A stretch of DNA of 64,000 nt. It comes from Heterodera schachtii (Eukaryota > Nematoda > Chromadorea > Rhabditida > Heteroderidae). Location of the stretch: positions 601,108 through 665,107 of the forward strand of contig SIJG01000031.1 of assembly GCA_023374025.1 (NCBI GenBank), given 5' to 3'. The notes under the pieces were generated by a model. It saw nothing but the letters and a program-made list of their open reading frames with translations. It ran no database searches and was not told where the DNA came from. Both the position numbers and the translations under genes were made by a program. Shown here piece after piece: positions 34,573 to 61,352 of the stretch (positions are counted from its first letter, which is position 1; the number at the start of each line of letters is the position of its first letter).

Positions 34573-34948
34573 CAGGGGCGTATCTAGAAAAATTTTTCGG
34601 GGGTTGACCCGACCGACCTGAAGACCTCTTTTTTTTTGCTATTTACCCAATAAAAAACTTTTTTTTCCCTTTCTGCTGGGTAAAAACTTCACTTTTTCAC
34701 TAAAAATCACCCAATCGTGGCCGTTTTAAGGCAAAAAACTTGTAAAAATAGTGGAAAATGGAGGTCCGGCGTGCCGATAGGCGCCGCCGGGAAAATTTTT
34801 GAAAATTTGAGTGCTATTTGTTACGAAAATTCTATAAAATTTTTAAATTTTCGTTTGGGGGGGGAGGGAATTCGAAAAAATTTTCCATTACTGTATTTGC
34901 TGGAAAATTTTTTAAAATTTTCATTTCGGCCCCCTAGATACGCCCTTG
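34573..34948. mobile_element. hAT-like element at ARP6 splice donor, TSD CCTGCCAA
   Basis: TIRs CAGGGGCGTATCTAG and CTAGATACGCCCTTG with exact 8-base duplications CCTGCCAA (34565-34572, 34949-34956). It contains one GC hairpin core at 34765-34790 and the flank AAAATTTTTGAAAATTTGAG. The duplication, read on the gene strand, is TTGGCAGG and spans the junction CTTGGCAG/GTTTTTAG, so the insertion falls at the exon boundary. Confidence 0.9.
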
Positions 34949-35099
34949 CCTGCCAAGATATCCCCGCTCAAATGGCAAGACGGAAAACAGTGCCGAACCG
35001 TCGGTGCACTGGTCCAATTCGTCGGCGACGAAAATGCGCTTCCGCTGCCCTTCGATTTGAACACAGTGTTGAAAAAATTTCTAAAAAACGGGAAGGATG

Positions 35100-35800
35100 G
35101 AGTGCAATCATTATAATAAAATAGTGCATACTCCCACAAAATTTAACAATTTTTTTTAAAATTGAAAAAAAAAATTTTTTTTTTTTAATTGGCATTTTTT
35201 TTGCCATAGTTTTCTAATAGAAAACCCTTGGAACTATGAAATATGATAGTGAATTTTATTTCACAAAATCCAAAAAATTGTTAAAGTTTTCGACTTTTTT
35301 CGAGTTAGGGCTAATGGCTTAGTTAAAATTATACCAGAACTCGTCAAGAGTGACTTTTCAAGAAAACATAGGTATATTTTTTTAATTTTGCACAATTTTC
35401 TATCATAATTCATTAAAATTTCTTAGGGGCCTCAAGGGACGGAGAATCCGAATCTGACATTTATTATGACCTATGTCGAACCCCGAACCCGATTTCGAGC
35501 AAAAGTCGAAAATTACAAATTTTCGTAATTTTTTATTTTTGGTCTAAAAATAGTTGATATGATTTTTTATTAGTGAATTGTCCAATATTTACCTCAATTT
35601 GTTTCAAATAAACAATTGATTCTAATACCAAGAAAATGAATGCCACGCGATACCTGCGACTTTGGTCGGTGGCATAGCCAGCCTTTATGCTGTACGCGCC
35701 TTTGTCCATGAACAGCGTCGGTTAGGAGACGAAAATAAATTAATTATTTTAAAAAGCAAAAGCAAAATAATTGTGAAATTAAAATTAATTATAACTAGCG
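35100..35800. other. AT-rich stretch with degenerate arms
   Basis: Contains GAACCCCGAACCCGA at 35480, a half-arm related to the element at 24605. No N-terminal ARP6 exon was found. Confidence 0.35.
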
Positions 35801-37243
35801 CAGGCGCGCTCGCTTCGCTCAGAGTCGGGGGCGTTTGGGCCCCAGTTTTTGGGCTCCCGCGTTTGGGCCCCCGTTTTTGGGCCGTGGCCGTGTCCCGACA
35901 TTTGCGGCCCCAGCTAATAACCGACATTTGCGGCCCGACTTTTGCGGCCCGACATTTGCGGTCCGACATTTGCGGCCCATTTCTTAAGGGTTATTTTCCG
36001 ACATTTGCGGCCCAATGGAAAATCAAACATTTGCGGCACCCAAAATACTAATTTAAAAATTTAACAAAAATTAACCACTTTCTGGTTTCTCTATATATCA
36101 CAGTGAGGTCAGTTATAGTTATTTGAAAATACCAATTTATTTAATTTTAACCAAATTTTTCTTTTCAAAATTTACATGAATATTCTTCTATCTTTTTTTC
36201 AACAAAATTGGGCTTGCTCAAGGCCCCATCTTATTTTAATATAAAATTCGAATAGTAGAAGATGTCGAAGACAAAAAAAATCGAAAGTTCGAAGAAATCC
36301 ATGCCAATCCTATTAATGTATGCGCTTATTAACGAGATTAGTCTGTAATTATTCTTGTGCTGATCAAAAAATAGTTAAATATAGAACATATCATAATAGA
36401 TTCGATAAAAATTTTATGAAATAAAAAGTAGTTAATTTTTGTTAAATTTTTAAATTAGTATTTTGGGGCCGCAAATGTCGGTTATTGGCTGAGGCCGCAA
36501 ATGTCGGACCGCAAATGTCGGGCCGCAAATGTCGGGGTTCCTTTTGGTTTTGGGCCCCAGGGTCGTTTGAGCCCCAAGTACAGAAAAATGAAAAATCACA
36601 GTAAAAACAACTTTTCAAATTTCAGCATAAAAATGTAAAATAAACATTTTAAAAATAAATTCAACAATAATTTTAACAATAGAAAAATGTAAAAATTAAA
36701 AGAAATTCACGGGTTCATAAGGTAATTTGGACAATAAAACAAAAAATCACGGGTTCATTCGATAGTTGCAAGAAATTCCCCGGAGAAACTCCAAAATAAT
36801 GTGAAATTGACCCATCAGAACTCAATTTAGCGAAGGTGTAAAAGTGGCCTTCGTAAGACAATTCTACTTTTTGTTTTTTGGTTGCAATTGGGTTAGCCAT
36901 TTCTGAAAAATGTCCAAATCAGAATGTACATCAAATTGGTTAACTATCAAAAAATTGTAAAAAAATGAGCGAATGTTAATTAAACCTAACTTATGCCAAG
37001 TGGCGAGGGATCCCTCAGGCTTAGTTTTTAGAATCTTAATTTTTAAAAAAGCACATTTTTATATTTTTAGGTTGGGCCAAACGACCCTGGGGCCCAAACG
37101 ACCCCGGGGCCCAAAAACGGGGGCCCAAACGCGGGGGCCCAAAAACGGGGGCCCAAACGCGGGGGCCCAAAAACGGGGGCCCAAACGCGGGGGCCCAAAA
37201 ACGGGGGCCCAAACGCTCTGGTCCCCTTCGCTCGCGCTAATCG
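35800..37243. mobile_element. Nested inverted-repeat elements (GGGCCCAAACG outside, TTTGCGGCCCGACA inside)
   Basis: The outer ends TAGCGCAGGCGCGC...CGTTTGGGCC and GGGCCCAAACGCTCTGG...CGCTCGCGCTA mirror each other, with a 30-base tandem of GGGCCCAAACGCGGG and GGGCCCAAAAACGGG at 37090-37215. Within it, 35898-36030 holds about five ACATTTGCGGCCCG units mirrored by CCGCAAATGTCGG units at 36468-36536, a second element inside the first. An open frame at 36715-36900 (minus, 61 codons, start MANPIATKKQKVELSYEG) lies between the arms and is unrecognised. Confidence 0.6.
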
Positions 37244-37289
37244 AAATTAAAAAACTCACTAACCTCACCTAACTTGATCTTCTCTATCT

Positions 37290-37301
37290 CAGCTTTTCTC
37301 A

Positions 37302-37348
<47 letters not shown>

Positions 37349-37536
37349 CTCTCCTTTTTTTCTTTCTCATCTATCTTTTTCTTATTTCGCACTCTTACTC
37401 TTTCTTCCCTTTCTCTATCTCTCTCAGTTTCTTTCTCTCTCTCTCCTTTTTCTGTTTCTCTCTCTCTCTCTCTCTCCTTCTCTCTCTCTCTTTCTCTCTC
37501 TCCTCTTTTCTCTCTCCCCTTTTCCCTCTCTATATT

Positions 37537-37569
<33 letters not shown>

Positions 37570-37605
37570 CTTTTTTTCTCTTTCTCTCTCTCTTTTCAGG
37601 TCTCT
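37290..37605. repeat. CT microsatellite
   Basis: Over 300 bases of CT/CTTT repeats. The open frames across it (Ser/Leu-rich on plus, Arg/Glu-rich on minus) are compositional only. Confidence 0.95.
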
Positions 37606-37814
37606 TTCTTATCCTTCTAAAAACAATCTTCAATAAATAAATTCAAAATGTTTGTTTACTTGTGAGACAAAAGGAAAAAATTATATAGATATAATATATT
37701 ATTTAAATTCCGCTACATAATTAAAATATATTTTTATATTAATCATATGCATGATGAATCGAAGTTTAAACCGAATTTTATTATGTTTGCTTTGTTGGTT
37801 TTGGCATATTAGAC

Positions 37815-38500
37815 CAGAGATGCGATATCTGAGTATTTTTACTCATTTTGTGGTCTTTTAGAGGGTCAAAGAGGATTTTTTTGAAAAATGAGGATTTGCG
37901 TATTTTTGTGGTCTTTTGATAAAAAAAAAAGTGACAAAAACGCATGATTTTTTAAAAAATTATGTATATTTGGCAAAATGTTCGAACTTTTTCTTCAAAT
38001 CTTTAAACATTTTTTCGAAAAATCCTCATTTTGCAATAAATTTTAATTAACTGTTAACAAATCCCATTCAAAATCCCAAAAATTTTTCCGGCAGCGCCTG
38101 TCGGCACTGCCGCTCCCCCACCCCCAATGTTCCCAAAAAGTTTTTTGGAAAAACCGCGCCACAAAAAAGCAATTTAAAAGCAAAAAATTAAGAATTGTCA
38201 ATTTATTAAAAGAATATAAATTGATTTTTTTAATTTTGTTTTTTTGGAGGTTTTAAACAAGATTAGTTATTTTGCGATTCTCGACCAATTTTTTAAGAAA
38301 AAAAAAATAGGAATTATTGGGGTCCGGCGGCGCTGATAGGCGCCATGATGGTTACAAACGAAAAATATGACAATTAAGTGATTTTGTTCGCATTTTATGA
38401 TGTTTTAAAAAATGAGGATTTTTCATGCCAAATGAGGATTTTTTTGAGGATTTTTTATGGCTGAAATGAGGATTTTCAAAATTTTGAGATCGCATCTCTG
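37815..38500. mobile_element. hAT-like element, GAGGATTTTT arms, copy 1
   Basis: TIRs CAGAGATGCGATATCTGAG and GAGATCGCATCTCTG with 7 of 8 matching duplication (TATTAGAC / AATTAGAC). The arms are units of AATGAGGATTTTT and TTTTGTGGTC. Two GC hairpin cores in opposite orientation lie at 38088-38112 and 38323-38349, each with the CTGTTAACAAAT-type or mirrored flank. Non-coding. Confidence 0.85.
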
Positions 38501-38539
38501 AATTAGACTATAAAGACTTCCTTTAAAATCAATAAGAAG

Positions 38540-39769
38540 TAGAGACCGGACGGGATCGGGGTCCCGCGGGATTTCTTCGGGATCCCGCGGGATTAAATTC
38601 GGGATCCCGACCTCGGGATCCGTCCCGAACGATTTTTTAAATTCATCGGGATTGATCGGGATTTCATCGGGATCCCGAACCGGGATCCCTCCCGACATTT
38701 TACCAATCCCGCGGGCTCCCGCGGGATTGAAGTCATGATAATTTTTCGAAAAATCTCCATTTTTTAATTAATATCTTGAATTTTAAATAAAAAATATTGT
38801 CATTTGCTAATTTTTCTTAAAAAAATCGGTAAAAATCCCAAAAAATTTCCACAGGTCTCCAAAATTCCAATAAAATTTTCAAAGTTAACGTAAAAGTTGG
38901 CTATTTTGTGACTTTTATTTTTTTCAAAAAAGAATTATCAAAATTTTTTTTAATTCCTAAAATATTATTTTAAAACTTTTAGGTTATGACACAACAATTT
39001 CTAAGAATTTTGTGCACAAAATTAGATTAGAAATTGTTGTCTACGTATTTTTCCTTCGGTGCATATCTGCAGCGCCGGACTCTAAAATCCTTATTTTCCT
39101 GAAAATTTTGCTCAAAATCGCTAAAAAATTTTGGTTTTTTGGACAAAATCTGTTAACAAATCGCATCAAAAATTACAAAATTTTTCCCGGCGGCACCTAT
39201 CGGCACCGCCGGCCTCCACATTGTTCCCTAAAGTTTTTGAAAAAATCTCAGCAAAAAAATCATAGAAATCTGATTTTTTGGCTCCGATGCACTTAACGAT
39301 TTGCTAATTTTCCTCAAATTGTTCAAACTGATCATAGGAGGCGAAAATATAAAAATTTATATTAATTAAATTGTAAAAAACAATTTAAAGCTATGTTGTT
39401 AAATGTTCTAATTTTTGGTCCTAAAACCTGATTTTTTAGGCATGATATTCGATTGAAAATTTTCTAAAAACCTGATATAATTCCCATACTTATTTTTCTT
39501 CAATGGAATTGATCAATTATAAATATTAGATAAGCATTATAACAAAACTTGACACAAAACGTAAAAAAATTTGAGTTTTTTTCAAATCCCGATAATCCCG
39601 CGGGATCTCGAAAAAAAATCTTCGGGATTGATCGGGATCGGGATTCGGTCGGGATCCCGAGTCGGGATCCGTCCCGATCGTTTTTATGAAATGTTCGGGA
39701 TTGATCGGGATCGGGATTCAGTCGGGATCCCGACTCGGGATCCCTCCGACCCCAGTTGTCCGGTCTCTA
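38540..39769. mobile_element. hAT-like element, GGGATCGGGATCC arms, TSD ATAAGAAG
   Basis: TIRs TAGAGACCGGAC and GTCCGGTCTCTA with exact duplications ATAAGAAG (38532-38539, 39770-39777). The arms repeat CGGGATCCCG and TTGATCGGGAT. The interior has a complete core at 39187-39212 with the flank ATCTGTTAACAAATCGCATC. A 94-codon open frame (39012-39296) crosses the core and is not credible as a gene. Confidence 0.9.
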
Positions 39770-40166
39770 ATAAGAAGCATTCACAAATCAAAATCAATAT
39801 AAGCCCGAAAAAAAAATAAAAAATTTGGAGTGCGAATTCGAAGATATTTTTTTTTTTTTTTTGCTCCGCGCGCCAAACTTTTTTTTGTTTCTCTCCATTG
39901 TTATTTGGAAATTTCAGCGCCGCAGAGCAAAAAACAGGAATTTGTAGCCCCTTTTCGCCAAAAACGACTATTTTTGCCATTTTGGCGTCTAAATTTTAAA
40001 AAAAGGCTATTTTTTTTAAATTTTAATACTTTTTTGTGGAGTTTTTTTTTTGGAAAAAAAGGCCAAAAAAGGAACGAAAACAGAAAAATACCAAAAAAGG
40101 CTACTTGCCGTACTTCCCGTCTACACCAAGGCGGAAAAAGGCGCCAACCAGCAGAGCAGATTACAC

Positions 40167-40893
40167 CAGAGCTGTGATCTCAAAATTTTAAAATCCTCAT
40201 TTCAGCCGTAAAAAATCCTCATTTGACATGAAAAATCCTCATTTTTTAGAACATCATAAAATGCGAACAAAATCAGTTAACTGTCATTTTTCCGTTTGAA
40301 AAACAATCACGGCGCCTATCAACGCCGCCGCACTCCAATAATTCCTATTTTTTCTTAAAAATTGGCCCTGAATCATAAAATTGGATCACAAAATTGTAAA
40401 TTTTTAGTAAAATCTACATATAACTACATAATCTTATTTAAAAGCTAAAAAAAAAAATTGATTTCTATTGATTTAATAAATTAACATTTCTTTAATTTTT
40501 TGCTTTTAAATTACTCTTTTTGTGGCGCGGTTTTCCAAAAAACTTTTTGGGAACTTGGGGGAGGTGGTCCGGCAGTGCCGATAGGCACTGCAGGAAAAAA
40601 TTTGGAATTTTGAGTGCGATTTGTTAACAGATTTTGTCACAAAAATGATTTTGACTGAGGATTTTTCGAAAAAATATTTAAGATTTGAAGAAAAAGTTCG
40701 AACATTTAGCCAAATATACACAGTTTTTCAAAAAATCATGCGTTTTTGTCACTTTTTTATCAAAAGACCACAAAAATCCTCAAATTTCTCAAAAGACCAC
40801 AAAAATCCGCAAATCCTCATTTTTCAAAAAAATCCTCTTTGACCCTCTAAAAGACCACAAAATGAGGAAAAATCCTCAGATATCACAGCTCTG
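40167..40893. mobile_element. hAT-like element, GAGGATTTTT arms, copy 2, TSD GATTACAC
   Basis: TIRs CAGAGCTGTGATCTC and ATATCACAGCTCTG, exact duplication GATTACAC (40159-40166, 40894-40901). Same arm units as the copies at 37815 and 48202. Cores at 40308-40331 and 40567-40591 in opposite orientation. Confidence 0.95.
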
Positions 40894-40899
40894 GATTAC

Positions 40900-41530: not shown

Positions 41531-41535
41531 TTTAT

Positions 41536-42495
41536 TAGAGTGCGACGGGACCGGGACCGGGCCGGGAATTCCCGGTCATCCGAGGTCCCTGTCCCGGTTC
41601 CCGGTCCCGGGTTTTGAAAAGCTCAGGTCCCGGTCCCGGTCCCGGTAGGGCAACCGGGAACCGGGAAAAAGAAGCACTGGTAAGAATGGGGGTCTGAGTG
41701 GAAAATTAGTAATGAAAATTAGAGTCAAAGGAAAAAATATAAAAAAAATGATTAAAAATATTCTTTAAAAGTTGTGCAAGCAATTGTGCAAATGGCCTAG
41801 TGGCTCGTCCCCTTGACTTTTGTCTACTTCTTTTCCCTGGTTCAATCCCTCTACGGAAATTAATATATTTTGAATTTTCTTTTTGTATATTCATGGTTTT
41901 CCTATCGACAAAATATGATTTCTCATATATTTTTTTGTTTATATATATTTTATTATTTTTTTAAATGAAAATACGTACAAATTGAGCCTAATAAATCCAA
42001 AAAACCTGCCTTTTTGTTGATAATCTGTTAACAAATTGGACTCAAATTTTCAAAATTTTCCCGGCGGCGCCTATCGGCACCGCCGGTCTCCTCTTTCTCC
42101 ACAAAAGTTTTTTGGAAAAAGCGCGCCGAAAAAATGATCAGAAAAGTAATATAAATTTATAATAATATTCGATCATTTAATCCAAAAATGATTATTTTAA
42201 AAAATAATTTAAATAAATTTAGTTTGATTAATTTTCATTAATTTAATTATGCTTTAACTTTTGGATTTTATTAAATAAAAAACAAAATAAAAATTTAATT
42301 TAGTATTATTTTCAATTGAAATAAATTAAAATTTGAATTTTTTAAAATTTTTTTGAATTTTTTGAATTTTTAAAAAGTCCCGGTTGGTCCCGGTTCCGGT
42401 CCCGAAAAAAAATTGAGGTCCCGGTCCCGGCTTCTCAGGTCCCGGCAAGTCCCGGTCCCGGTTTTGCCCAAAATTCCCGGTCCCGTCGCACTCTA
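41536..42495. mobile_element. hAT-like element, GTCCCGGTCCCGG arms, TSD CTTTTTAT
   Basis: TIRs TAGAGTGCGACGGGACC and GGTCCCGTCGCACTCTA, exact duplications CTTTTTAT (41528-41535, 42496-42503). The arms are tandem GGGACCGGG units. One full core at 42061-42086 with ATCTGTTAACAAATTGGACT before it and a GGAAAAAGCGCGCC segment after it. A tRNA-like module lies at 41793-41860. Related solo arms are at 12166, 51705 and 58935. Confidence 0.95.
41793..41862 (+). ncRNA. tRNA-like module inside hAT-like element
   Basis: ATGGCCTAGTGGCTCG is a textbook A box, and CTGGTTCAATCCCTC some 45 bases later a B box. No convincing acceptor stem closes it, so a tRNA-derived module rather than a gene. Confidence 0.45.
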
Positions 42496-42499
42496 CTTT

Positions 42500-43160: not shown

Positions 43161-43184
43161 GAAGATCGACTGTTTGTGCAAGAG

Positions 43185-43420: not shown

Positions 43421-43471
43421 GACGACAGATATGCATGCGGCGCCGCGTGCGCGTGCGGAAGTGAACAAGCG

Positions 43472-46339: not shown

Positions 46340-46480
46340 CTTCTTCTTCCTCTTCTTCTTCTCGTCCTCTCTGTCTCTTTCGGCTTTTCCTCATCCCTTT
46401 TTTCTTTTCTTTGCTCTTCCTTTTCTGTCTCTCTCTCTTTTCCCATTCCCTCTTTTTCTCTTCCAATTTCACTCTTTGCC
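46340..46480. repeat. CT-rich tract
   Basis: CTTCTTCCT and CTCTTT repeats. Together with the GA tract at 43185 it flanks the Mutator-like element, which inserted beside it. Confidence 0.8.
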
Positions 46481-46489
46481 GGTGCCTTA

Positions 46490-47510
46490 CGGACATTTGC
46501 GGACGGACATTTGCGGACGGACATTTGCGGACGGACACTTGCGGACGGACATTTGCGGACGGACATTTGCGGACAATTTCGGTAAACAATTAAAAAAATT
46601 TCTTAAAAATCTTTTTTTTAATTTCTGAAAATATGGAATGGAGACTGAAAACTAAATAAAACTTTGTTTTTGGGCTTTTAAGCCTAACATCTTATTTTTA
46701 AATTTCTAAGAAATTAATTTCACTACTCGTATTTTAGTGATTAAATTAAAATTGGTTCCCAACATTGGGGAAGTGTTAATGTCGCCTGTTACACTTAAAT
46801 TCGGGTGAGAGTGCTATTTTTTATCTTTAGAAAAAATCTAAAAATTTATGAAACTATTTTCCAACGAGGATTTTTCACCGACCATTTTTTAAATTTCTCT
46901 AGCCATACAGACAAATCTTGTAGGGAAATTTGCTACCCACCACCTGAATTTTCTTTTTTTTATTTGTTCGGGATGGAGAAGAACCCAGCATATATAAGGG
47001 TTGCTCTACTTTTCATCAGCAGGGAAAGTTTCAGAAAAGGAAATCTGATGCCCAAAAATGTCGAGAATCGGATTTTAGTACAGCTGATGTTAAGCGCTTA
47101 TATAATAGGCTGTTCATTTCGAAATTGCAAGCAAATTTTGTTCGCGATTAAGCATGTCTGAGAATTTTTTCTAAAGATAAAAATAGCACTCTCACCCGAA
47201 TTTAAGTATAACAGGCGACATTCACACTTCCCCGATGGTTGGGATCAATTTTACTTTAATCACTTAAAATACCAGTAGTGAAATAATTTATTAGAAATGT
47301 AAAAATAAGAGATGTTAGGCCTAAAAGGCCAAAAACAAAGTTTTATTATGTTTTAAGTCTACATTCGATATTTTCAGAAATTTTTATACGATTTTTTCCC
47401 CGAAATTGTCCGCAAATGTCCGTCCGCAAGTGACCGTCCGCAAATGTCCGTCCGCAAGTGTCCGTCTGCAAATGTCTGTCCGCAAATGTCCGTCCGCAAA
47501 TGTCCCACTG
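46490..47510. mobile_element. Inverted-repeat element, ACATTTGCGGACGG arms
   Basis: Six to seven units of GGACATTTGCGGAC at 46492-46574 are mirrored by GTCCGCAAATGTCC units at 47405-47506. The inverted homology extends inward for about 330 bases (AAACTTTGTTTTTGG, AAGCCTAACATCTTA, GGGTGAGAGTGCTATTTTT and mirrors). The centre (46830-47165) is unique AT-rich sequence with open frames but no known domain. No clear target duplication. Confidence 0.75.
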
Positions 47511-47519
47511 CGTCTCCTC

Positions 47520-48201: not shown

Positions 48202-48905
48202 CAGAGCTGCGATATCTGAGGATTTTTCCTCATTTTGTGGTCTTTTAGAGGGTCAAAGAGGATTTATTTTGAAACTGAGGATTTGCGGATTTTTGTGGTC
48301 TTTTGAGAAATTTGAGGATTTTTGTGGTCTTTTGATAAAAAAGTGACAAAAACGCATAATTTTTTGAAAAATAGGTATTTGGCAAAATGTTCGAACTTTT
48401 TCTTCAAATCTTAAACTTTTTTTTTCGAAAAATCTTCAGTCAAAATCATTTTTTTGACAAAATCTGTTAACAAATCGCACTCAAAATTCCAAATTTTTTC
48501 CGGCAGTGCCTATCGGCACTGCCGGACCCCCTCCCCCAATGTTCCCAAAAAGTTTTTTTGGTAAACCGCGCCACAAAAAAAAAGCAATTTTTCTGGGTCT
48601 CAGTGGACAGATAAACAGAATTCATTACACATGGACACAGTGAAAGCATTGGCCCAAGTGAAGTGCAACTTCGATTTTTCGTGCTCAGACTTCCATAAAA
48701 TGCTTACAAATGACAAGAAATTGATGAATTTGATTGTTTCGAATGAAAAATATGACAGTTAACTGATTTTGTTCGCATTTTATGATGTTTTAAAAAATGA
48801 GGATTTTTCATGTCAAATGAGGATTTTTTTGAGGTATTTTAGTCGCAAATGAGGATTTTTTATGGCTGAAATGAGGATTTTCAAAATTTTGAGATCGCAG
48901 CTCTG
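48202..48905. mobile_element. hAT-like element, GAGGATTTTT arms, copy 3, TSD TTTTAAAG
   Basis: TIRs CAGAGCTGCGATATC and GAGATCGCAGCTCTG, exact duplications TTTTAAAG (48194-48201, 48906-48913). Core at 48500-48525. Unlike copies 1 and 2, its right half holds about 150 bases (48597-48755) with an acceptor-like TTTTCTGGGTCTCAG and an open frame reading FSCSDFHKMLTNDKKLMNL, apparently captured host sequence. It ends 26 bases before the tomosyn start codon. Confidence 0.9.
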
Positions 48906-48931
48906 TTTTAAAGTGTCAATTGTTATAGGGC

Positions 48932-51900
48932 ATGGACAGTGCCTGGAGGCGTTTGGTCTCGGCCATCGACGGCATCAAGGCTCAGTTCACCGACGGCGAT
49001 TCGGAGGACACAGCAGACTTGCCAAGCACCGCCAACTCAGTGCCGGACCAATTGGCAAACATCCGGGAAAGGGTCGAACCGGCGCATTGCCAATTGAGCA
49101 AAGTGAAAATGGGCGGAAAATAATAATAATGATAAGGATAAGGAAGAAGTATGATAAGGATAAAAGATAATGATTAAGACAATGATAAAGACAAAGGATA
49201 AGGAAGAGTTAGAAGGATAGAGATAAAGGATAATGATAAAGACAATGATTGTGATAAAGGAAAGGATAAGGAAGAGTAGGGTTGCGATCCCGACGTCGGG
49301 GGTTGGAAAAGTCGGGGTTCGGGGTCGGGGTTTTTCAATTTTTGCCTTATGCCAAATAGTCAAAAAACTTTATATTATTTTTGCTTAAAAATATTTATTA
49401 TTCATTAATAATTTTTGTGCTTTTTTATTTTGTATAGAATTAATTAAAACGCATAAGGCATTTTTAAAAATGGTCATTTTTGATGAAAATCTGTTAACAA
49501 ATTGCACTCTAATTCTCTAATTTTCAAAAAAAAAATTTCCCGGTGACGCCTACCGGCACCGTCGGACCCCTGTTTCCAAAAAGTTTTTTTGGAAAAAGCG
49601 CAGCACAAAAAAAATATTTTTTATTTTTTTGAACTGAAATAAATTTTTCAAAATGATTTTTTGACTCTAAATGCTGGTTTTTCGCCCTGGCAGCCCTGGT
49701 TTTTCCGTATGGTTTTCGCGGCACACATTTTCCAAAGACTTGCGGAGCATGGGGGTCCGGTGGTTTCGATAGGCGCCGCCAGGGAAATTTTGAAAATTTT
49801 GTATAATTTGTTAACAGATTTTTATCAACATATGCCAGTTTTGCGATTTTGAGCCAATAATTTTTATTGGTGTTTTTGTTTAAAAATCCTATAAGAAAAA
49901 AATAAATTCAAAAAGAAAACGTCAACCGGTATCGAACTCATGACAAAAAGTTTGTTAGTAGTGTTAAAGCACTAAACACTACTCCACAAAAGTCAGTTCT
50001 AAATATAAAAGATCAAATTTACTTTTTTTTAATAATAATAATTTGTCAAGATGATTTAAAAAAGGGTCGGTGTCGTAGTTCGTCGGGGTTGGAAGCGTCG
50101 GGGTCGGGGTTAAAACATGGCCAACAGTGCCGGGGTTCGGGGTCGGAGCGGGGTCGGGGTCGCAACCCTAATTTGTAAGGAAGAGGATAGGGATAATGAT
50201 AAAGGATAAGGAAGAGAATTAGGATTAGAATAAGGATGATAAGCATTCAAAATATTTATTATATTTTCAAAAATGATAAATATATTAGATTCAGAAAAAG
50301 AATGATAAAATATACGGAAAATAATTTAAAAAAAAGAAATCCAAAAGTAATTTACAAAATTTAAAATGAACAAAAGTAGCTAAATTTTTATTAAAAATAC
50401 CAAAAATAAGTAAATATTCTTTATAATTATTTATATTAATTAAATTATTTAAAACCAATTACAAATAAATCAATTGGATGATTTAATTCAATTTAATTAA
50501 AGAGTTTATTTTTAGTATTTTTGTAGCCAAAAATATTAAATATTAAAAAAATTCACAGATTGTTCGGCACGGCTTTCCCGACTCGCCAAAATGCATGGCT
50601 CTCCAAAAATTGTGTGTCATTGGTTCGTGCAACGGCTGTGTTCGTCTGTTCGGCCAAGTAATTACTGAGTACCGCATGTTAATGTATTTTAAATTAAATA
50701 AAAAATAAATTATTATTTCATTTTGCATTCATTTGAATTATTTACTTTCCTTAATTTTGGCAGGTCTCTCCCGTCGCCCCGACCAAGCTGTTAATTGTGT
50801 TCGACCGTTGTCAACTCGTGCTGTGGAACATTCAGACCCTCGAGGTTGACCGGCTCAGGTTGGATGATCAGCCGAACAGTCCGGTGATCGCGGTCAGCTG
50901 GCATTTCGACGGCAAACAGTTGATGGCCGGGCATCACGACGGTGAGTCGATTACTGTAATACGCACAGTATTTGCATAGACCATGTCATTCAATCGGGTT
51001 TCATTTTCAATTATGATTTATGATATCTATATATGTGACCGGCTCACGTAGAATAATGATCAGACATCGCAACGGTGAGGCGGTTACTGTAATACGCACA
51101 GTATCCGCACGACGGGGAGGCGCCAGGGTAAACAAGCTGCATCCGTATTTATGAGTGACCGGATCGTTTAAAAAACTGATCAGAGTTAATGTCGAAAAGT
51201 AGATCGGTCGAGTTTAGTGACCTAGTCGTATTGGTCAACTTAGGTTTAAGATCGAACAACAGATCGGAAACCTTATGCCAAATTGATCACTTTAGAAAAT
51301 TTTCAATTAATGGAAAATACGCGGGGACGGCCGATCACTCCACTCACACAGGTTCAGTGTCCATTTGGAATGTGAAGAAGCCGCACGAAATGGTACAGCA
51401 CAGTATGCAACATGGAGGAATGACAAACGTACAACAAAACCAGCAGAAGCATGACAACCACAAAGAGAAAACTGCTGCTTCTGCTGGTGATCAGCAACAA
51501 CAACGGCACCGATCGACAATGCTGCCAATGCCATCGCTGTGGCATGTAAGCCGATCACACCGCCGAGCTGGAACGTGAACATTGATGGCGATCAGATGAT
51601 CATCTTCGCCGGAGATGTGCTGGACAAATTTTTTTAATTTAAGAAATTTTTTTAACAAATTACATTAAATTTCCAAAATTTTCCCCGCCGGCACCTATTG
51701 GCACCGGTCGGGACCGGGACCAAAACCCGGACAACTGAGTACCGAAGTCGCGGTTTTGACTGGGACCGGGAAATACCCGGGTTTTTTTCCCGATTTTCCC
51801 AGCCAAAAAGTCCCGGTTTACCTCAAAATTCCCGGTCCCGACCAACCCTAAGAAAAAAAAGAAAAGGCCTTCGGATTCCCGTTGAGAAATTTTTCTGGCA

Positions 51901-54900
51901 CGGGCCTGGCGGCACAAGACTGGGTCATCAGCCCCCAACCATTGAGTCCTGGGCAAAAATTCATAAAATTTGCAAATTTTCACCATTAACCAAACTGTGA
52001 TTTTTCTCTGCCTGACAAGGTCGTCATTTTTGGCACAAAAAATAGTCGTCTGAGGTTTTTTTAATTTTACTAAAATTTTCTGCAATGAAATACATCATAT
52101 CAACACGCAAAGCCGCCTATGAAATTCGAAAAATTTTGTAAAAAAAGTGCCGTTTTAGGCATGCCAATGGACGAGGGCGCATTGCCATCGCTGACGGTGA
52201 AGCGTGCCAAAGGGTCGCTCACTTTGCTGGAGGTGAGTGGGCTCATAATTAATTATCAAATTTTCAAATTATGCCAGATGAACCACCCAATCATGTCCAT
52301 GTTGCCGCTGCACGCGTCGCCCTACGCCAGCGCAGCACAACCCCCGCACACCATGGCTGTTCTGTTGCGCAACGACCTGCTGGTTGTGGACATGGAAGCC
52401 CAAGGGTACAAATCAGGGCTGTTGCAAGTTTCGCTTTTCGACTTTCGCTATTTCGCTTTTTTGGGGCCTTTCGCCTTTTCGCTTTCGCTTTTTTGCTGAA
52501 AAGCGAAAGAAAAGTACACCCCTAAAGATTGGGTTTTTAAAATAAACAAATGCATTTTCGTGGGAGAAAAAGCAAAAAATTAACACAAAGTTTTTACCAA
52601 ATTTTTATGAAATAAAGTAAAATTTGCTTTTGTTTGTTTGTCTGTAGTCTGGTGTAGTGGTTAGTGCAGCAACCTTGACATTATTTTCTGTTAAGAGTTC
52701 GATGCCGCTTGACGGTTATTTCTTTAATTTAATTTTTTTAATTTTAAAATTCGCCTGGCGCTACCTATCGGCATCGCCAACAAAAATAATACTAGTAATT
52801 ATTCAAAAAAAAAATTCTCAAAATTGCAAAAATCTATCATTTTTGGGACAAATCTGTTAACAGATCCATCCAAATTTTCAAAATTTTTCCCGGCGGCGCC
52901 GCCCCCACCCCTTGTTTCCGAAAATGTTTTTGAAAAGCGCATCGCTAAAATTGTAAATTTTTTGACAATAAAAAGTGAATTTTTTATTCTTTTAAATTCA
53001 TCTAATTGTTGGAAAAAATTTCGCCTTTTGCCTTTCGCTATTTCGCTTTTTTTAGGCATTTCGCTTTCGCCTTTTCGCTTTTTATTTTATTTTCGCTTTT
53101 TTCGCTTTTCGCCTTTCGCTTTTTATTTTTCCCTTTGCAACAGCCCTGGTACAAATGTCAATAATCCATTAACTAATGAATCAATTAAATAATTAATTAA
53201 GGTATTTATTTGAGCGGACCCGTACGCTGACCTAAAAATTGTTAATACCGTATGAAATATTCATTTAATCATTTTTATGTTTAATGCTGTACTTAGCAAA
53301 TTGCATTAAAATTTCCCAAAATTTCCCCCGGTTGCGCCTATCGGAACCGCCGGACACCCATTTTTACATTATTTTTTAAATGTTGACCCCAAAATGGCAA
53401 AAATAAGTTGTTTTTTTGGCGATGGTTATAAATTGTTTCTTTTTCTTTGGGCGCTGAGTTTTAAAATAAAACTGGGGAAAAAAGTTTGGATTTTTCATCC
53501 GAAAGCAAAAAAAAAACTAAAAAAAATTGTACAGGCGGAATTGGCCGAGAATGTGCCACAGGAAAGCATGAAATGCTGTTGACCGGCGATGAGGAAGGGT
53601 TCATCAAATTTTGGCAGGCGTCCAGTGAACAGCTTCAGGTATGGTAACTCGGTAATACCGTAGCACCAACAAAAAACTATAAGGAATACTGTAAATAAAA
53701 TAAAGATTTATTTTTAATTTTTAAAGATTATGTACAAGCTGAAAACGGGAAGGCATTTCGATAAGAATGTTTCGGCACACATTGCTTATCTGCAAACTGC
53801 ACAAGCAGCGAATGGAGGCAAAGAAAAAGCAGTAAAATTATCAAAAACTATTTTTTGTTATTTTTAATTGGTAAATTATTTTTTCAATTTATATTAACTT
53901 TCTCCAATATTTAAAATTATTTCATTAACTAAATGTACAAAGTGCCATTAAATTCAAATTAAAAAAAAAATATTTTCCCATTTTTCTCAGTTGACCGTTC
54001 CCGTGATTAGCCACGCGGTTGCGGACATGGAGCTGTGTTTGGACTCGCACCAGCTGCTTGTTGCCAGCCGTTCTGGCCAAGTCACACAATTTCTTTTTGC
54101 CAAGATGGAATGTTGCCAAGAAATTGCGGTAAAAAATCCGTTTTCATATATTATTTTATACAAAATTCCACATGAAAATTTGTGTTACATAATTTTTTTT
54201 CATACAGACAATGGTTTTGCCACAGCTGTGCCGTTCGATCATTTCAGCAACTTTTTCACCCACAACAGCACCACCATCGCCCAAGAATGGCGTCCAACAA
54301 GCGCCAAATGGTAATAAAGAATGCCTTTTTTTGGCCTTTTTGTGTTTTTATGTCTTTTTTGGTCTTTTTTCCGAAAAATATTAAAAATGCAATAAAATCG
54401 TAAAAATACACTCCCTAAGAATGACCTGGAAATTTAAAAAAAAATACGCCCCTAAGAAATGAAAATTTCTCAAAAATTCATCTCCAAAATAATATGTTTG
54501 TTTTCTTGATAAAAATTTATGTTTAAAATTTTCCTTATTCGAAAAACATTATAAATCTTTAATAATCATTTAAATGATGACTAAATTTAGTTATTTCGTT
54601 TTTTACGTGTTTTACTCACTAAAAATTCTTAATAAAAAAATTTTAAATGCCTTTTTTCATGCTTTTTTAGGTTTTCGTGCCGTTTCATGCCCTTTTTACA
54701 ATTTTTTGATGCCTATTATAGTGCCTTTTTCGCGATTTTTGGTTCTTTTTTAGTCAAAAGTTATTGCCATTTTAACTATTTTTTTGACAAAAAATGACAT
54801 AAATTTGCTTAAAAGCAGTTGCATTTTTGGCATCATTAGGTAACACTTTTTCTTTATTATATTGCAAATTTTCAAAAAATTTGGCCATCGTTTGAAAAAT

Positions 54901-56059: not shown

Positions 56060-56443
56060 GTTAGTGCGAATCCATTCTTTTTACCAATTTCACATTTTAT
56101 TATGACTTTATAAGAAATTTAATTATGGACAATTAAGCTAATTACCGTTAGTTAATTGCGTGTTTGCCAACCATAAACACTGACTAATCAAAAAATACTA
56201 ACACGCATTTCTATACCGTACATCTCTCTTTTTTTATAATACACCCATCTACCGTAATGTCTCTCTACCGGTTGTATGTGGGCACCGGGAAGTTTGGGCA
56301 CCAAATAAGGATTGTAAAAATAAATAAAATTTTTGTTATCTAAAAATTGCAACCATTCAATTTAAATGCATTAATCAAATTAAGGACCGAAAATTTTTTA
56401 TCAATCATAGACTAATTATTCTATTTCTCCCCGCCTATTTCAG

Positions 56444-57330: not shown

Positions 57331-57689
57331 GGTGGGCGAAGAAATGGTGTAGCGCCGAATTTAACATTGGAAAATTAAGAAATTATGTGCTCACATACAA
57401 AATAACCAACCATAATAATTTTTAGTAGGGCAGCAAATTATACGCATTTTTTCTTACTGTAGAATAAATGTGTTTTCTGACTTTTCGCCATTATTTGACC
57501 CTCTCACACTTTGTTGTTCATATCACCTTCAATCGATTTTTGATTCGGGATTTTTTGTGCTGATATGAAGCCGATATATTGGATTAATAAACACATAAAT
57601 AATTGCCCACAATGCTTCATTTAATTATCTTAAAAATTGCATGTTTGTTTAAAGACTTTCTTCCACCAGTGTAGTAGGGCTCAAAATTT

Positions 57690-57955
57690 TTAGCTTTTTG
57701 TCTATTTTTGCTACTTTTCGAACATATTTTCTAAGTTTTTTAAACGATCACAACTTTTTTTAGATATACAACTCTCTATAACAAAATTTATTTTCTCAAA
57801 AATTCATATCCAAAATTTAGCTTTTGTCTATTTTTGCTACTTTTCGAACATATTTTCTAAGTTTTTTAAACGATCACAACCTTTTTTTTAGATATACAAC
57901 TCTCTATAACAAAATTTATTTTCTCAAAAATTCATATCCAAAATTTATTTAGTTT
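57690..57955. repeat. 128-base direct tandem duplication
   Basis: TAGCTTTTTGTCTATTTTTG through AAAAATTCATATCCAAAATT occurs twice in succession with only one-base differences in T runs. Confidence 0.9.
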
Positions 57956-58179
57956 TTACCGCGCACTGTTACTCTTTATTCTACTAACAACATGTGGAGC
58001 GGATGAGGCATACAAAGTCGTTTCGACATATTTTATCCGATCAACGCGAGATGCACCACTTATCACAGTAAAAGAAGTGAGAGGACCGAATTTTTTTTTG
58101 TTTTACATATTTTGAGATTTTTAAGATTCTATAGAAATTTCTTGTTTAAATTAAAAGCTTTTTTTTGCAAATATTTAAT

Positions 58180-58625
58180 TAAAAAACTGCCATTGTATGA
58201 ACTGCTTCTGTACGAATTGCCGAATTGTATATTGTCATTGTACGAACTGCCATTGAACAAACTGCCATTATACGAACTGCCATTGTATGAATTGCCATTG
58301 TAAGAAGTGACATTGGATTTCCGTTGTTAAATTGCTATTGTACGAACTGCAATTGTATCAATTGCCATTAAAAAACTTTATGTACGAGTTGGCATTGAAA
58401 GAACTGCCATTGTACGAACTACCATTGATCGAATTACCATTGTATGAATTGCCATTGTACGAACTTCTATTGCATCATTGCCATTGTACAAACTGCCATT
58501 ATATGAACTGCCACTGTACGAACAGCCTTGCCTATTGTACGAAGTGCCACTGTACTAACTGCTTTTTTACGAACAGCCATGCCTATTGTACCAACTGCCA
58601 TTGGATTAAGTGCCATTGTAAAACA
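58180..58625. repeat. 15-base minisatellite (GAACTGCCATTGTAC)
   Basis: About 25 imperfect copies of GAACTGCCATTGTAC, in phase over long stretches so that plus frames read repeated LPLYE. Stops and phase changes from 58303 on argue against translation. Related units form the arms of the element at 7690. Confidence 0.85.
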
Positions 58626-58629
58626 TAGA

Positions 58630-58735
58630 TTTTGATGTACGGTTTCCGGTGTCCAATTTCCTTGAAGTCCAAAATTCCGGCGGTGTCCAGTTTTCCGTTT
58701 TCTGGTGTCCAATTTTCCGATGTCCAATCTAGCTG
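58630..58735. repeat. GGTGTCCAATTTTCCG array
   Basis: Four units of GTGTCCAATTTTCCG directly abut the minisatellite. Probably an arm of another element; no partner found. Confidence 0.6.
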
Positions 58736-58807
58736 TTCCACTTTATTGTTCAAAAGAAATGAACATTTATTAATTTATGAGCCATCCTTTAAAGTTTGTC
58801 TGCTCAG

Positions 58808-61352
58808 AGAACATTAAAGGCAAGGTACCTTTAGATCGTGAACAAGAGGCTGCGAAAAAAAGGATGCGGTTTCTCCCATTCGACGAAACAGCGGTGGAAA
58901 ATTTTAAAAATGTGTCTTTCCAAATTTCCCGGTCAAAACTGACCAAAACCGGGACTGGGTACTCAGTTGTACCCGTTTTTTCAGTACCAGTCCCGGTCCC
59001 GTGCAGCTCTACTTTATATTGATTGAACCTTAATTTCCGTCATTCTTGACAGAGGAAATCAATCGAAATTGATTTGCACGGTTGGTGAAAACAGGTTTTT
59101 GGGCCATAGGTTCAAATCCACTTGCCTATTAAATATTTTAAAGATTTTTTTTTTGGAGTTTTTGGGCCGCCGATCAGGAATTTAACATCCATTTCGCCCA
59201 ATTACGAATCCCTGACCCAAACTCGAACAAAAAATCAATTTTACAAAATTATAAAATTTTGTTTCAAGAAAGAAATTTGTGATTTCATCGGAATGATATT
59301 TTTTTAATAAACTTGTTTTTTTCGAATTCGGTTCAGGGATTCGTAATTAGACGAAAATGATGTCAAATTCTTGATCGGCCGGCGGTCCAAAAAACTCCAA
59401 AAAAAAATCTTAAAAACATTTAACAGGCAAGTGAATTTGAACCCATGGCCCAAAAACCTGTTTTTAACCAACCGTGCAACTCAATTTCTCTTGATTTCAC
59501 TGTCAAGAATGGCCAAATTTCCGATTTTTTGAGGCCTTGTAACTCTCGAAGGAGGCAAATGCACCGCTCAAATTAAACTTTCATAATAGAAGTCAACCCT
59601 GCTCTATCCAATGGTATATCGTTTGTAGGCATTTTCCGACTGACAGATCGGAATGTTTCCTTGTTAATAATAATGCAAAAAAAAAATTCTCAAAGGCTGT
59701 GATAAAATTGCTTGAAAATTTGGTTCTTAAATCTACGCCCACCACTTAAATACCTTTCTTTATGAGAAATATATTTCTTTTCAAGGTCAGCCAAGACGAC
59801 AAACAAGCAACGTTACAAGCGAGCCGAAGCAGCTTCTTTGAGGCGAAGAAATGCATTAAAGGAGTATGGGTTAAATGGAAAAGGTAAATTCTAGAGGTGT
59901 GCCGTGATTCACGGTCACGGTTACCGTGAATTTCACGGGTTTTTTCACTCACGGTCACGGTCATGATTCACGGTACCAATTCACGGTTATTCCGTGAAAA
60001 ATTTACACTGGATAAAATTGAATATTTATGAAATAAACTTTTTTTTATAAAGAAATTTGGTCTTTTTTGGGCAAAGTTTGCTAAGAAATCGATCAAAATT
60101 TTCAAAAATTTCCCCGGCAGCGCCTATCGGCACCGCCGGCCCCCTCCCATATTCCTGAAACTTTTTTGAACAAAGCCAACCAACTACATACAAATAAAAA
60201 GCAAAGTTTCAAGTATGAGCCCATTTAAATAAAAAAAATTCATTTAGTTTTTTAAAAAATTCGCTCGAAATAAAGTTATATCAGTTAATTAGTCATATTT
60301 TCTAAAAGTTTCCACTAAAACCTATATTTTTCTTAAAAATTGGGTAAATATGTCTCACAAAACCATTTATAAAAGGTCGGAATCAATTTAGAACGTCCAC
60401 AATTATGCGAAAAATGCAAATTATGGGCGCGCTTGCCAATGAACACTTCAGTACCCGATTTTTTTAAACTTGAAATATGCAAGCGCACCTATAATTTGCG
60501 TTTTTCATCGTTTTTGACTTTTAGATTAATTAAAATTGTAAAATTTGCTAATTTTAGGGATAAATCTGTTAAAAATGTTAACAAATTGCACTCAAATTTT
60601 CAATTTTACCCCCGGCGGCGCCTATCACCACCTCCGGGCCCCCAAAATTTATTATTTCATAAAAAATTGGCTCAAATTCGCAAAATTTGGTCATTTTTTG
60701 GACAAAATCTGCGCACAAATAAGACTCAAATTTTCAAATTTTGCGATGGCGTCTATCGGCGCCTATGGACCCCCCTTTTCCCAAAGAAATTTATTTGGAA
60801 AATTATACTACAAAAAAATAGTTTAAAAAAAATTCGCCGCCAAAAAAAATTTTCTTAAAATTCACGGTCACGGTCACGAAAACCGTGAATTTCACGGGTT
60901 TTTTGGATCACGGTCACGGTCACGATTCACGGGACCAATTCACGGTCACGGTCACGGTTCACGCGGTCAATTCACGGTCACGGTCACGATTCACGGGTTT
61001 TTTTAGTCACGGCACACCTCTAGTAAATTCCAAATAAATATTTTGATTTCAAGATTTTTAGCTAGTGAAAAGGTTGGTACAAATGGGAACGATGTACCCG
61101 CAAGATGTTTATGCGTGAGTTTTGTATAAAAAAATTACCAAATTAGTTTATTTATTTGAAAAAAACATAATGAAAATTTTAATTTTTTATTGACTTTCTC
61201 CTAAAATTAAGAAATTTTATAATAGCAATTTCAAATTTAAACCACCCGAAAATTTAGTGTTATTGGAAAGTTACCAAAAAGGAAAAGGAAAGGAAAAGGA
61301 GGAGGAAAATAATGAGGAAGAGGAGGAGGACGATGAAGAGGAGAACGAGTGA
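58808..61352 (+). CDS. Unrecognised gene with acidic C-terminal tail (4 exons visible)
   Basis: Exons 58808-58911 (NIKGKVPLDREQEAAKKRMR, FLPFDETAVENFKN), 59786-59883 (VSQDDKQATLQASRSSFFEA, KKCIKGVWVKWK), 61054-61114 (FLASEKVGTNGNDVPARCLC) and 61212-61352 (KFYNSNFKFKPPENLVLLES, then a Lys/Glu tail ending DDEEENE and TGA). All junctions are GT-AG and the frame is continuous, so this looks like a working 3' gene end. I recognise no family; the basic start and acidic tail suggest a nuclear or cytosolic protein. The second intron is almost entirely a hAT-like element whose target duplication is the splice donor. The first intron also carries element arms (58935-59010, 59090-59470). Upstream exons were not found before 58808. 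Confidence 0.5.
59090..59470. mobile_element. Fold-back element with B-box-like ends in intron
   Basis: CAGGTTTTTGGGCCATAGG with GGTTCAAATCCACTTGCC at the left is mirrored at 59418-59462 (GGCAAGTGAATTTGAACCC, CCCAAAAACCTG). ATTACGAATCCCTGACC inside mirrors AGGGATTCGTAAT. The GGTTCAAATCC is a B-box match. Confidence 0.65.
59892..61022. mobile_element. hAT-like element at splice donor, CACGGT arms, TSD GTAAATTC
   Basis: TIRs TAGAGGTGTGCCGTGA and TCACGGCACACCTCTA, exact duplications GTAAATTC (59884-59891, 61023-61030). The left duplication is the 5' splice site after ...WVKWK-AG. The arms are CACGGTCACGGT/TTCACGG units. Three cores (60114-60139, 60612-60638, 60743-60769), the second preceded by ATCTGTTAAAAATG...AAATTGCACTC. 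Confidence 0.95.

What the first reader, a model, noticed from the sequence alone, without database searches (positions are those of the whole stretch)
34573..61022. One GC hairpin core shared by elements with unrelated ends
A core of two 11-base arms (CCGGCGGCGCC and GGCACCGCCGG around TATC) occurs about twenty times: near 4143, 10611, 16856, 34765, 38088, 38323, 39187, 40308, 40567, 42061, 48500, 49540, 49756, 51685, 52754, 53328, 60114, 60612, 60743 and 62509. It is usually preceded by TCTGTTAACAAATTGCACTC, then AAAATTTTC, and followed by CCAAAAAGTTTTTTGG and GCGCGCCACAAAAA. Yet it lies inside elements whose TIRs and arms differ (CAGAGCTG, TAGAGACC, TAGAGTGCG, TAGGGTTGCG, CAGGGCTGTT, TAGAGGTGTG, CAGGGGCGTA). 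This suggests a modular group in which a conserved core is kept while termini are swapped, or a core that is itself mobile or functional (hairpin RNA, replication or transposase-binding site). I know of no described family with this structure.
Basis: partly seen in the sequence, partly recalled or inferred. Interest (0 to 1): 0.88.

Follow-up and report, generated by a model that had tools for sequence, protein, structure and literature searches.

The report
Shared hairpin inside many hAT transposons
In a cyst-nematode genome, one small GC-rich hairpin sits in the middle of short hitch-hiking DNA transposons that have different ends, which suggests that the ends were exchanged around a kept centre, much as is known for some animal retroposons.

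Summary
Of the 20 listed sites, 18 are cores with at most 8/26 mismatches and 2 look like cores damaged by indels; the reversed control gives 0 where the core gives 17. The genome (Heterodera-like, 178.5 Mb) has 3,481 exact copies. The carriers are non-autonomous hAT elements: 24 held elements have 12-bp TIRs and 8-bp target duplications and fall into 13 arm types. Between arm types only about 130-150 bp around the hairpin is shared. Three delimited transposase-coding hATs lack the core; one matches both ends of a core-bearing element at 94-97% but lacks its middle. Three other transposase loci have cores nearby and could not be delimited. Two-core blocks keep their order across five arm types. 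So ends were swapped around a kept centre, partly by nesting. The hairpin is also a place of breaks. It is better conserved than its flanks, also when copies are found by flank alone; support for maintained pairing is mixed. Why it is conserved is open. Closest precedent: conserved domains of SINEs. A new variant of a known kind.

The parts
34573..34948 (-). Non-autonomous hAT element, TIR CAGGGGCGTATC (one mismatch), target duplication CCTGCCAA; core 34765-34790 on the - strand (1-base deletion)
37815..38500 (+). Non-autonomous hAT element, TIR CAGAGATGCGAT, target duplication wATTAGAC (one mismatch); cores 38088-38113 (+) and 38324-38349 (-)
38540..39769 (+). Non-autonomous hAT element, TIR TAGAGACCGGAC, target duplication ATAAGAAG; two-core block, cores 39053-39078 and 39187-39212
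40167..40893 (-). Non-autonomous hAT element, TIR CAGAGCTGTGAT, target duplication GATTACAC; cores 40306-40331 (+, 8 mismatches) and 40569-40594 (-)
41536..42495 (+). Non-autonomous hAT element, TIR TAGAGTGCGACG, target duplication CTTTTTAT; exact core 42061-42086
48202..48905 (+). Non-autonomous hAT element, TIR CAGAGCTGCGAT, target duplication TTTTAAAG; core 48500-48525 with fully complementary arms
49277..50170 (+). Element with TAGGGTTGCGAYCCCGAC ends, no clean target duplication; cores in opposite orientation 49540-49565 (+) and 49757-49782 (-)
52414..53148 (+). Non-autonomous hAT element, TIR CAGGGCTGTTGC, target duplication GTACAAAT; degenerate core 52755-52780 and a half core (exact left arm 52890-52900, right arm lost)
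59892..61022 (+). Non-autonomous hAT element, TIR TAGAGGTGTGCC, target duplication GTAAATTC; cores 60114-60139, 60612-60637, 60743-60768
42001..42146 (+). The shared module in the element with the exact core: about 60 bp upstream, hairpin 42061-42086 (loop TATC), about 60 bp downstream
16857..16882 (-). Core with module flanks, element ends not found
10611..10636 (.). Degenerate core (5 mismatches on +, 7 on -), element ends not found
51685..51710 (+). Core, 6 mismatches, element ends not found
53328..53353 (+). Core, 3 mismatches, element ends not found
4143..4163 (-). Probably a decayed core: left arm (1 mismatch), TATC and part of the right arm with an indel
62509..62529 (-). Probably a decayed core: exact left arm, damaged right arm

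Best explanation
SHOWN: the core is the centre of a non-coding module of about 130-150 bp, often as a tandem two-core block of about 300 bp, inside non-autonomous hAT elements. The ends belong to many different hAT arm types; in the one case where a transposase-coding hAT matches both ends, the module stands where that element has its transposase gene. The hairpin is the best conserved part, and several copies are broken or joined at it. INFERRED: the module is an old hAT-MITE interior that keeps acquiring new ends. When a hAT family is active, template switching during repair of excision gaps or stalled forks, or insertion of one hAT element in another, joins its two ends to the module, and its transposase then spreads the chimera. 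The GC hairpin stalls or breaks DNA and so promotes such switches. Repair from thousands of like copies may also keep the 26 bases uniform. A cis-acting benefit (for example a bound host factor) may add selection but is not shown.
For: hAT identity: TIRs of YARRG type plus 8-bp target duplications; PF05699 in L050, L052, L053 and a BED finger in L053. Modularity: 24 elements, 13 arm types, shared part mostly limited to the module; 60-bp blocks beyond it fall to the shuffled baseline. Swap of ends: L038 shares 178 bp at 96.6% and 232 bp at 94.0% with L053, which lacks L038's core-bearing middle of about 390 bp. Two-core block inherited as a unit: in a tree without the core columns, 11 of 15 second-core units (arm types A, B, G, K, N and unassigned) and 1 first-core unit form a group with support 93/98; first/second needs 6 changes against 10.4 shuffled, 2 of 500 as low. 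Core direction equals that of the transposase gene in 3 of 3 cases with a matching end (both ends for L053, one end for L052 and L049). Nesting: inner hAT ends inside L029, L041/L045 and C1_15411. Breaks at the core: L008 joins the left side of L037's first core to the right side of its second; half cores at 52890 and C1:16185; core lost with flanks kept at C1:140096. Conservation: mean pairwise identity 0.86 in the core, 0.63-0.67 in the flanks, baseline 0.58 (copies there were found by their core, which favours the core). Found by flank alone, 15 of 24 upstream and 15 of 20 downstream hits have a core with at most 4 mismatches, one each has 8 and 6, and 8 and 4 have none or half.
Against: No empty-site pair catches a capture. 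Breakpoints in L038 lie in A/T runs, where microhomology cannot be told from chance. Of six transposase loci read, three were delimited and lack the core (L050 with 3 of 12 TIR mismatches), but three (L049, L051, L054) have a core within the 4.6-4.8 kb fetched and no delimited element, so a transposase-coding element with the module is not excluded. Simple nesting explains some cases without template switching. Left/right contrast between copies is not commonest at the core: 51 pairs there, 101 and 32 at the module's own edges, 2 and 4 further out. The second-core group has 93, not 95, bootstrap support; 4 of 15 second-core units, among them that of arm type I, lie outside it, and first-core units form no single group. 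GTTAACAAAT, about 25-34 bp upstream, also looks well kept, which hairpin-centred repair does not explain. Fork stalling at this hairpin is inferred. 42 of 77 distinct cores were not inside a complete TIR/duplication element by the strict test, so their carriers are only partly identified.
Confidence: 0.55

Rival explanations
1. Ordinary nesting only: one core-bearing hAT MITE inserted into members of other hAT families, the composites multiplied, and the inner ends decayed.
For: Inner 3' end of the L037/CAGAG group inside L029; inner 5' end of L046 type inside L041 and L045; inner 5' end of the TAGAGACC type inside C1_15411. Weaker signals: L046-type 3' end in L036, CAGGGATGGCAC-type 3' end in C1_160849 and TAGAGACC-type 5' end in C1_5064.
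Against: In most of the 13 arm types no inner end of another arm type passed the threshold in 2400 comparisons, and I saw no element in which both inner ends did; core direction agrees with the transposase gene in 3 of 3; L038 is 94-97% like L053 at both ends, yet apart from ends of its sister L035 no inner end was flagged in it.
Confidence: 0.25
2. The core is a functional cis element or RNA hairpin under selection (host-factor or transposase-accessory binding site, or source of a small RNA) that raises the copy number of any hAT that carries it.
For: Core-specific conservation; 12 cells with changes on both sides against 3.8 in column shuffles, 0 of 500, covariation score 0.207 against 0.165, 0 of 500; loop TATC and the C/A mismatch kept; 13 of 18 complete hAT-like elements in the window plus 200 kb of C1 carry it.
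Against: In the slid control the structure shifted by -3 reaches 13 such cells in 6 pairs, no fewer than the true one (12 in 6), though its covariation score is lower (0.121). Compensatory changes are partly shared by related copies and can arise in one step by hairpin-templated repair. The change that mends the mismatch (75 copies) is hardly commoner than the pair-breaking change of the neighbouring base (57 copies). No Rfam match in the window; no expression data.
Confidence: 0.33
3. All elements are one old family whose ends diverged by simple descent.
For: Full-length alignment within the TAGAG..GGGACCGGGA group and the CAGAGNTGYGAT group; L006 and L046, of different arm types, share a 3' end.
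Against: Under the test no two of the 13 arm types match at both ends; module neighbours are at random baseline; L038's ends match a hAT with another interior at 94-97%; inside the CAGAG group one block is replaced while both sides stay at 95% or more.
Confidence: 0.05
4. The core (or module) is itself an independently transposing element.
For: Thousands of copies in many contexts.
Against: No target duplication or sharp edge seen around the module in the alignments inspected (not searched systematically); inherited as a two-core block; loss at C1:140096 leaves CGCG, as a hairpin deletion would; the unassigned copy C1:140153 begins like a truncated hAT (my reading).
Confidence: 0.04

Closest known systems
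Highly conserved domains (HCDs) of SINEs: CORE, V, Deu and others; V domain inside the MER6 MITE (PMC6887750, abstract and introduction read)
   Same: A central stretch (about 120 bp for V) is shared by elements of different origin; reason for conservation unknown; module exchange proposed.
   Different: SINEs are retroposons with RNA-derived heads and LINE tails; here the carriers are hAT DNA elements with TIRs and 8-bp duplications, and the best conserved part is a 26-base GC hairpin.
Pack-TIRs / chimeric TIR elements made by gap filling or by fork stalling and template switching (PMC8277862, passages read)
   Same: Foreign sequence joined between hAT ends and in some cases multiplied; template switching with microhomology.
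   Different: There mostly single-copy captures; here one and the same non-coding module in many hAT arm types, with thousands of core copies.
hAT-derived MITEs (features recalled)
   Same: YARRG-type TIRs, 8-bp duplications, mostly 0.4-1.2 kb; ends shared with a transposase-coding hAT where one was found.
   Different: In L038 the interior is not a deletion remnant of the matching hAT but a module shared across arm types.
Nested MITEs
   Same: Inner hAT ends seen inside some outer elements.
   Different: Not seen in most arm types.

Membership tests
hAT superfamily (non-autonomous members) | Short TIRs starting YARRG (motif recalled) | tested here: met
   24 elements with 12-bp TIRs, up to 2 mismatches; a YA.RG-type start was a condition of the search
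hAT superfamily (non-autonomous members) | 8-bp target site duplication | tested here: met
   0 in two mono-shuffled sequences
hAT superfamily (non-autonomous members) | Ends shared with an element coding for a hAT transposase | tested here: inconclusive
   Met at both ends for one arm type (L053 with L038 and L035), at one end for L046 (L052), weakly for TAGAGACC (L049); the other arm types had no match at both ends in the six transposase loci read
Highly-conserved-domain SINE | Central conserved domain shared by elements with different ends | tested here: met
Highly-conserved-domain SINE | RNA-derived head and LINE tail, no terminal inverted repeats | tested here: not met
   Elements have TIRs and 8-bp duplications; one tRNA-like call (38542-38637) lies at one element's end and was not followed up
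Helitron | TC...CTRR ends, 3' hairpin just before CTRR, no target duplication (recalled) | tested here: not met
   Core is internal and mostly followed by a C-rich stretch, and the elements have target duplications
Satellite DNA | Long head-to-tail arrays | tested here: not met
   One to three cores per complete element, four within about 350 bp in L032
Known RNA family | Match to an Rfam model | tested here: not met
   0 matches at gathering score in the window
Described repeat family with fixed ends | Match to a Repbase or Dfam consensus | not testable with these tools
   No repeat library held

The most novel reading that the evidence does not exclude
A DNA-transposon counterpart of the SINE conserved domains: a 26-base hairpin with a sequence-specific function in cis (for example a replication- or repair-coupled copy-number booster) that is kept by selection while it passes from one hAT family to the next, each time taking the ends of whichever transposase is active.
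Probability: 0.26. Interest if true: 0.82.

Novelty: new variant of a known kind. Interest (0 to 1): 0.62.

Why it matters
It carries a long-standing puzzle of SINE biology, why a central domain stays conserved while ends differ, into DNA transposons, where it can be tested directly: transposase-coding hATs, young chimeras and thousands of core copies lie in one genome. It also suggests how non-autonomous elements could outlive their transposase family by changing ends. In practice, repeat annotation by consensus may merge or split such elements wrongly.

Tried and rejected
Strand bias: the listing suggested Mb-long blocks with one core orientation. Rejected: that listing (2 mismatches allowed) omitted the - strand site C1:6758, which is exact, and the exact search gives 1752 forward and 1729 reverse, with both orientations mixed in its listed 100 places.

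Known RNA family: none in the window. SINE-type head: one tRNA-like call in the window. Helitron end: not met.

Exact 45-base pattern of upstream flank plus left arm: 0 copies reported genome-wide; the tool warns that it skips very common words, so this is weak.

Core as independent insert: the clearest core-less module copy looks like a hairpin-type deletion.

Looser end searches for the unassigned cores gave nothing convincing. A first BLAST of them returned nothing, apparently because the gap settings were not accepted; it was repeated with default settings.

Sliding identity from global alignments is inflated for A/T-rich unrelated sequence, so only contrasts within one pair are used.

Literature: 8 searches listed, as far as titles and abstract starts show, no paper on a shared hairpin core in hAT MITEs; the library lacks most subscription journals, so absence is weak evidence. 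Of PMC4168063 (Galileo) passages were seen.
Full report
WHERE. The window is C31:601108-665107 of a 178.5-Mb genome in 356 contigs. One window protein (13500-14369, -) has 19 relatives at E up to 0.001, all named as Heterodera trifolii or H. schachtii, the best at 59% and 52% identity. The host is thus a cyst nematode of or near Heterodera; the species is not settled.

THE OBSERVATION. Eighteen of the 20 listed positions hold a core with at most 8 of 26 mismatches, and the two others hold what look like cores damaged by indels. One more core lies at 39053. The control, the core read backwards, gives 0 at up to 7 mismatches, where the core gives 17. Genome-wide there are 1752 + 1729 exact copies with any loop, and 0 + 0 for the tool's reversed control. 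The counts at 2 mismatches (6527 and 6587) largely count the same near-palindromic sites on both strands.

THE CARRIERS ARE hAT ELEMENTS. Eight core-bearing elements of the window have 12-bp TIRs beginning YARRG or close to it and 8-bp target duplications, with at most one mismatch in either. In the window plus a contiguous 200 kb of contig C1, 18 hAT-like elements pass the test (at most 2 mismatches in TIR and duplication together) and 13 of them carry a core: 8 of 9 in the window, which was picked for its cores, and 5 of 9 in C1. One mono-nucleotide shuffle of each gave 0. Adding 22 loci (L006, L007, L029-L048), all chosen because they hold exact cores, gives 24 core-bearing complete elements. 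By similarity of their outer 120 bp they form 15 clusters, plus 49277-50170 as a sixteenth without clean duplication. I merged two pairs by hand (L041 with L045, alike at one end and over most of their length; C1_15411 with C1_160849, whose ends match in flipped orientation), which leaves 13 arm types. One pair of different arm types (L006, L046) shares a 3' end.

WHAT IS SHARED. Between arm types BLAST aligns about 120-150 bp around the core in most pairs (its output was cut in the middle). For 75 cores with 200 bp on each side, mean pairwise identity by block is 0.52, 0.54, 0.67 (upstream, towards the core), 0.86 (core), 0.63, 0.57, 0.53 (downstream); shuffled flank gives 0.58. So the shared module is about 60 bp on each side, with two-core elements sharing more. 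Within some arm types whole elements align (63-98%), so those TIR variants are related by descent.

ENDS FROM ONE hAT, MIDDLE FROM ELSEWHERE. L053 (C36) holds a 2903-bp hAT: TIR CAGGGATGGCAC/T, duplication ATAAAAAC, BED finger and hAT dimerisation domain in separate reading frames. L038 matches its first part over 178 bp at 96.6% and its last 232 bp at 94.0% but has about 390 bp between them that L053 lacks; both cores are there. L035 is a second member of this arm type whose interior differs more from L038 than its arms do. L052 (2565 bp, duplication CATTATGG) shares 104 bp at 80% with the 5' end of L046. L050 (3670 bp, duplication ATAAACAT, 3 of 12 TIR mismatches) has TAGAGA[GC]CGG ends; its relative L049 matches the first 48 bp of the TAGAGACC elements at 84-86%. 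L050, L052 and L053 have no core at up to 8 mismatches. The other three transposase loci read, L049, L051 and L054, have cores within the fetched stretch but no delimited element. In L051 the core lies in a fragment 81% like the 3' part of L046, and in L049 about 500 bp beyond the end of the similarity to L050; so they are not clear counter-examples, nor do they count as support. In the three cases with a matching end the core has the same direction as the transposase gene.

NESTING. L029 contains, at its positions 464-500, the 3' end of an L037-type element. L041 and L045 contain an L046-type 5' end at 372 and 378. C1_15411 contains a TAGAGACC-type 5' end at 414. Weaker signals were seen in L036, C1_160849 and C1_5064. 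I saw none in which both inner ends passed the threshold, and no matching inner duplication.

BLOCK INHERITANCE. I chose by hand 15 two-core arrangements from the held loci (not used: L048, L054, window 60612/60743, opposite-strand pairs, and the third cores of L006 and L032). A tree of the flanks without the core places 11 of 15 second-core units, from arm types A, B, G, K, N and unassigned elements, together with one first-core unit (support 93/98, short of the tool's star). First/second needs 6 changes; shuffled labels need 10.4 on average, and 2 of 500 were as low. Four second-core units (L006, L032, L040, C1:95524) lie outside, and 11 of 27 inner branches are open. Arm type needs 10 changes in the same tree; no shuffle was printed for it.

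THE CORE AS BREAKPOINT. L008 has a single core whose left side equals that of L037's first core (0.93, next block 0.87) and whose right side is 84% like that of L037's second core. Half cores lie at window 52890 and C1:16185. At C1:140096 a module has lost the core and kept CGCG, compared with its relative at C1:95524. Pairs with one flank block alike (0.80 or more) and the next unlike (0.62 or less) numbered 51 at the core against 101 and 32 at the module's outer edges and 2 and 4 further out; this count by itself does not single out the core.

CONSERVATION. In the 32 copies from the window and C1, core positions agree at 0.78-1.00, the 14 bases before it at 0.53-0.84. Those copies were found by their core, so I also searched the same 264 kb by flank alone, with profiles trained on copies from other loci and thresholds above five shuffles and the reversed sequence: upstream, 24 non-duplicate hits of which 15 had a core with at most 4 mismatches, 1 had 8 and 8 had none or half; downstream, 20 hits with 15, 1 (6 mismatches) and 4. 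Some of the core-less hits may be false. The core tends to be nearly intact or gone.

PAIRING. On 41 of 43 distinct cores (two with indels left out), taken on the strand where the odd pair is U.G, 86.9% of cells pair (column shuffles 84.5, sd 0.6; 0 of 500), 12 cells change on both sides (3.8, sd 1.8; 0 of 500), in 6 of 11 pairs (13 of 500), and the covariation score is 0.207 (0.165; 0 of 500). Sliding one arm by -3 gives 13 such cells in 6 pairs, so that measure does not separate the structure; percentage paired (53.9) and covariation score (0.121) do. Related copies share some changes. This is mixed support. The natural mismatch (C8/A19) is kept: C in 70 and A in 72 of 77 copies. The mending change C8 to T occurs in 75 copies and the pair-breaking change of the same CpG in 57, against 3,481 unchanged (the last figure allows any loop, the other two only TATC). 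Folding: -12.0 kcal/mol for the given DNA strand, -14.7 for the other, -16.1 and -17.6 for the two mended versions. Pairing strength alone is therefore not what is kept.

READING. The anatomy supports a module that stays while hAT ends change. Nesting explains part; L038 and the two-core blocks ask for exchange, for which gap filling and fork stalling with template switching are described in Pack-TIRs, 208 of 370 of them hAT (PMC8277862, abstract start and passages). That the hairpin promotes these switches, and that repair from many copies keeps it uniform, is inference. A cis function is the main rival for the conservation. Highly conserved SINE domains, one of which (V) is also known inside a MITE, are the closest precedent (PMC6887750, abstract and introduction). 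A survey of transposons in plant-parasitic nematodes reports hAT among the widespread superfamilies; the whole word MITE was not found in its main text (PMC11118728, passages).

Noticed in passing
window 35906-35989, 36493-36534, 46475-46586, 47394-47519: Short arrays of a 14-base unit (ACGGACATTTGCGG and variants), each pair in opposite orientations 0.5-0.9 kb apart.
   Followed up: no
window 37087-37240: 14-base tandem array of GGGGGCCCAAA-type units, close to a CT-rich tract at 37287-37615.
   Followed up: no
window 58173-58629: Degenerate 15-base tandem array (TGCCATTGTACGAAC-like).
   Followed up: no
window 113-412 and 1651-1950; 752-952 and 2278-2478: Direct duplication about 1.5 kb apart, 100% over 300 bases and 96% over 201 bases.
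   Followed up: no
window 38542-38637: ARAGORN calls a tRNA-Glu two bases inside the 5' end of the TAGAGACCGGAC element; probably spurious, but a tRNA-like end would be notable.
   Followed up: no
window 22098-24588, - strand: Two open frames with weak AA_permease matches (PF00324, 26.7 and 29.4 bits); probably exons of a transporter gene.
   Followed up: partly
window 13500-14372 (-) and 15794-16306 (+): Two related frames in divergent orientation (75% DNA identity over 533 columns); relatives in H. trifolii and H. schachtii are partly labelled F-box proteins, but Pfam gave no match.
   Followed up: partly
L042:1195-1822: A complete TAGGGATGGGAT hAT element without core (duplication TATATAAC) splits a core-bearing element; its two sides match adjoining stretches of L037.
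   Followed up: partly
C1:8828-12306 (L009-L010): Three closely alike core-bearing TAGAGCTGA.CG elements in a row whose flanking 8-mers are shared crosswise, as after segmental duplication.
   Followed up: no
window 38088/38324, 40306/40569, 49540/49757; C1:16052/16270; L031; L033: Pairs of cores in opposite orientation about 220-540 bp apart; the C1 pair has a half core (16185) between them.
   Followed up: partly
window 48202-48905 against 40167-40893: Two CAGAG elements agree at 95-100% per 60-bp window except for one block of about 180 bp at unrelated level: an internal block swap.
   Followed up: partly
modules genome-wide: GTTAACAAAT, about 25-34 bp upstream of the core, also looks well kept; not quantified and not explained.
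   Followed up: no
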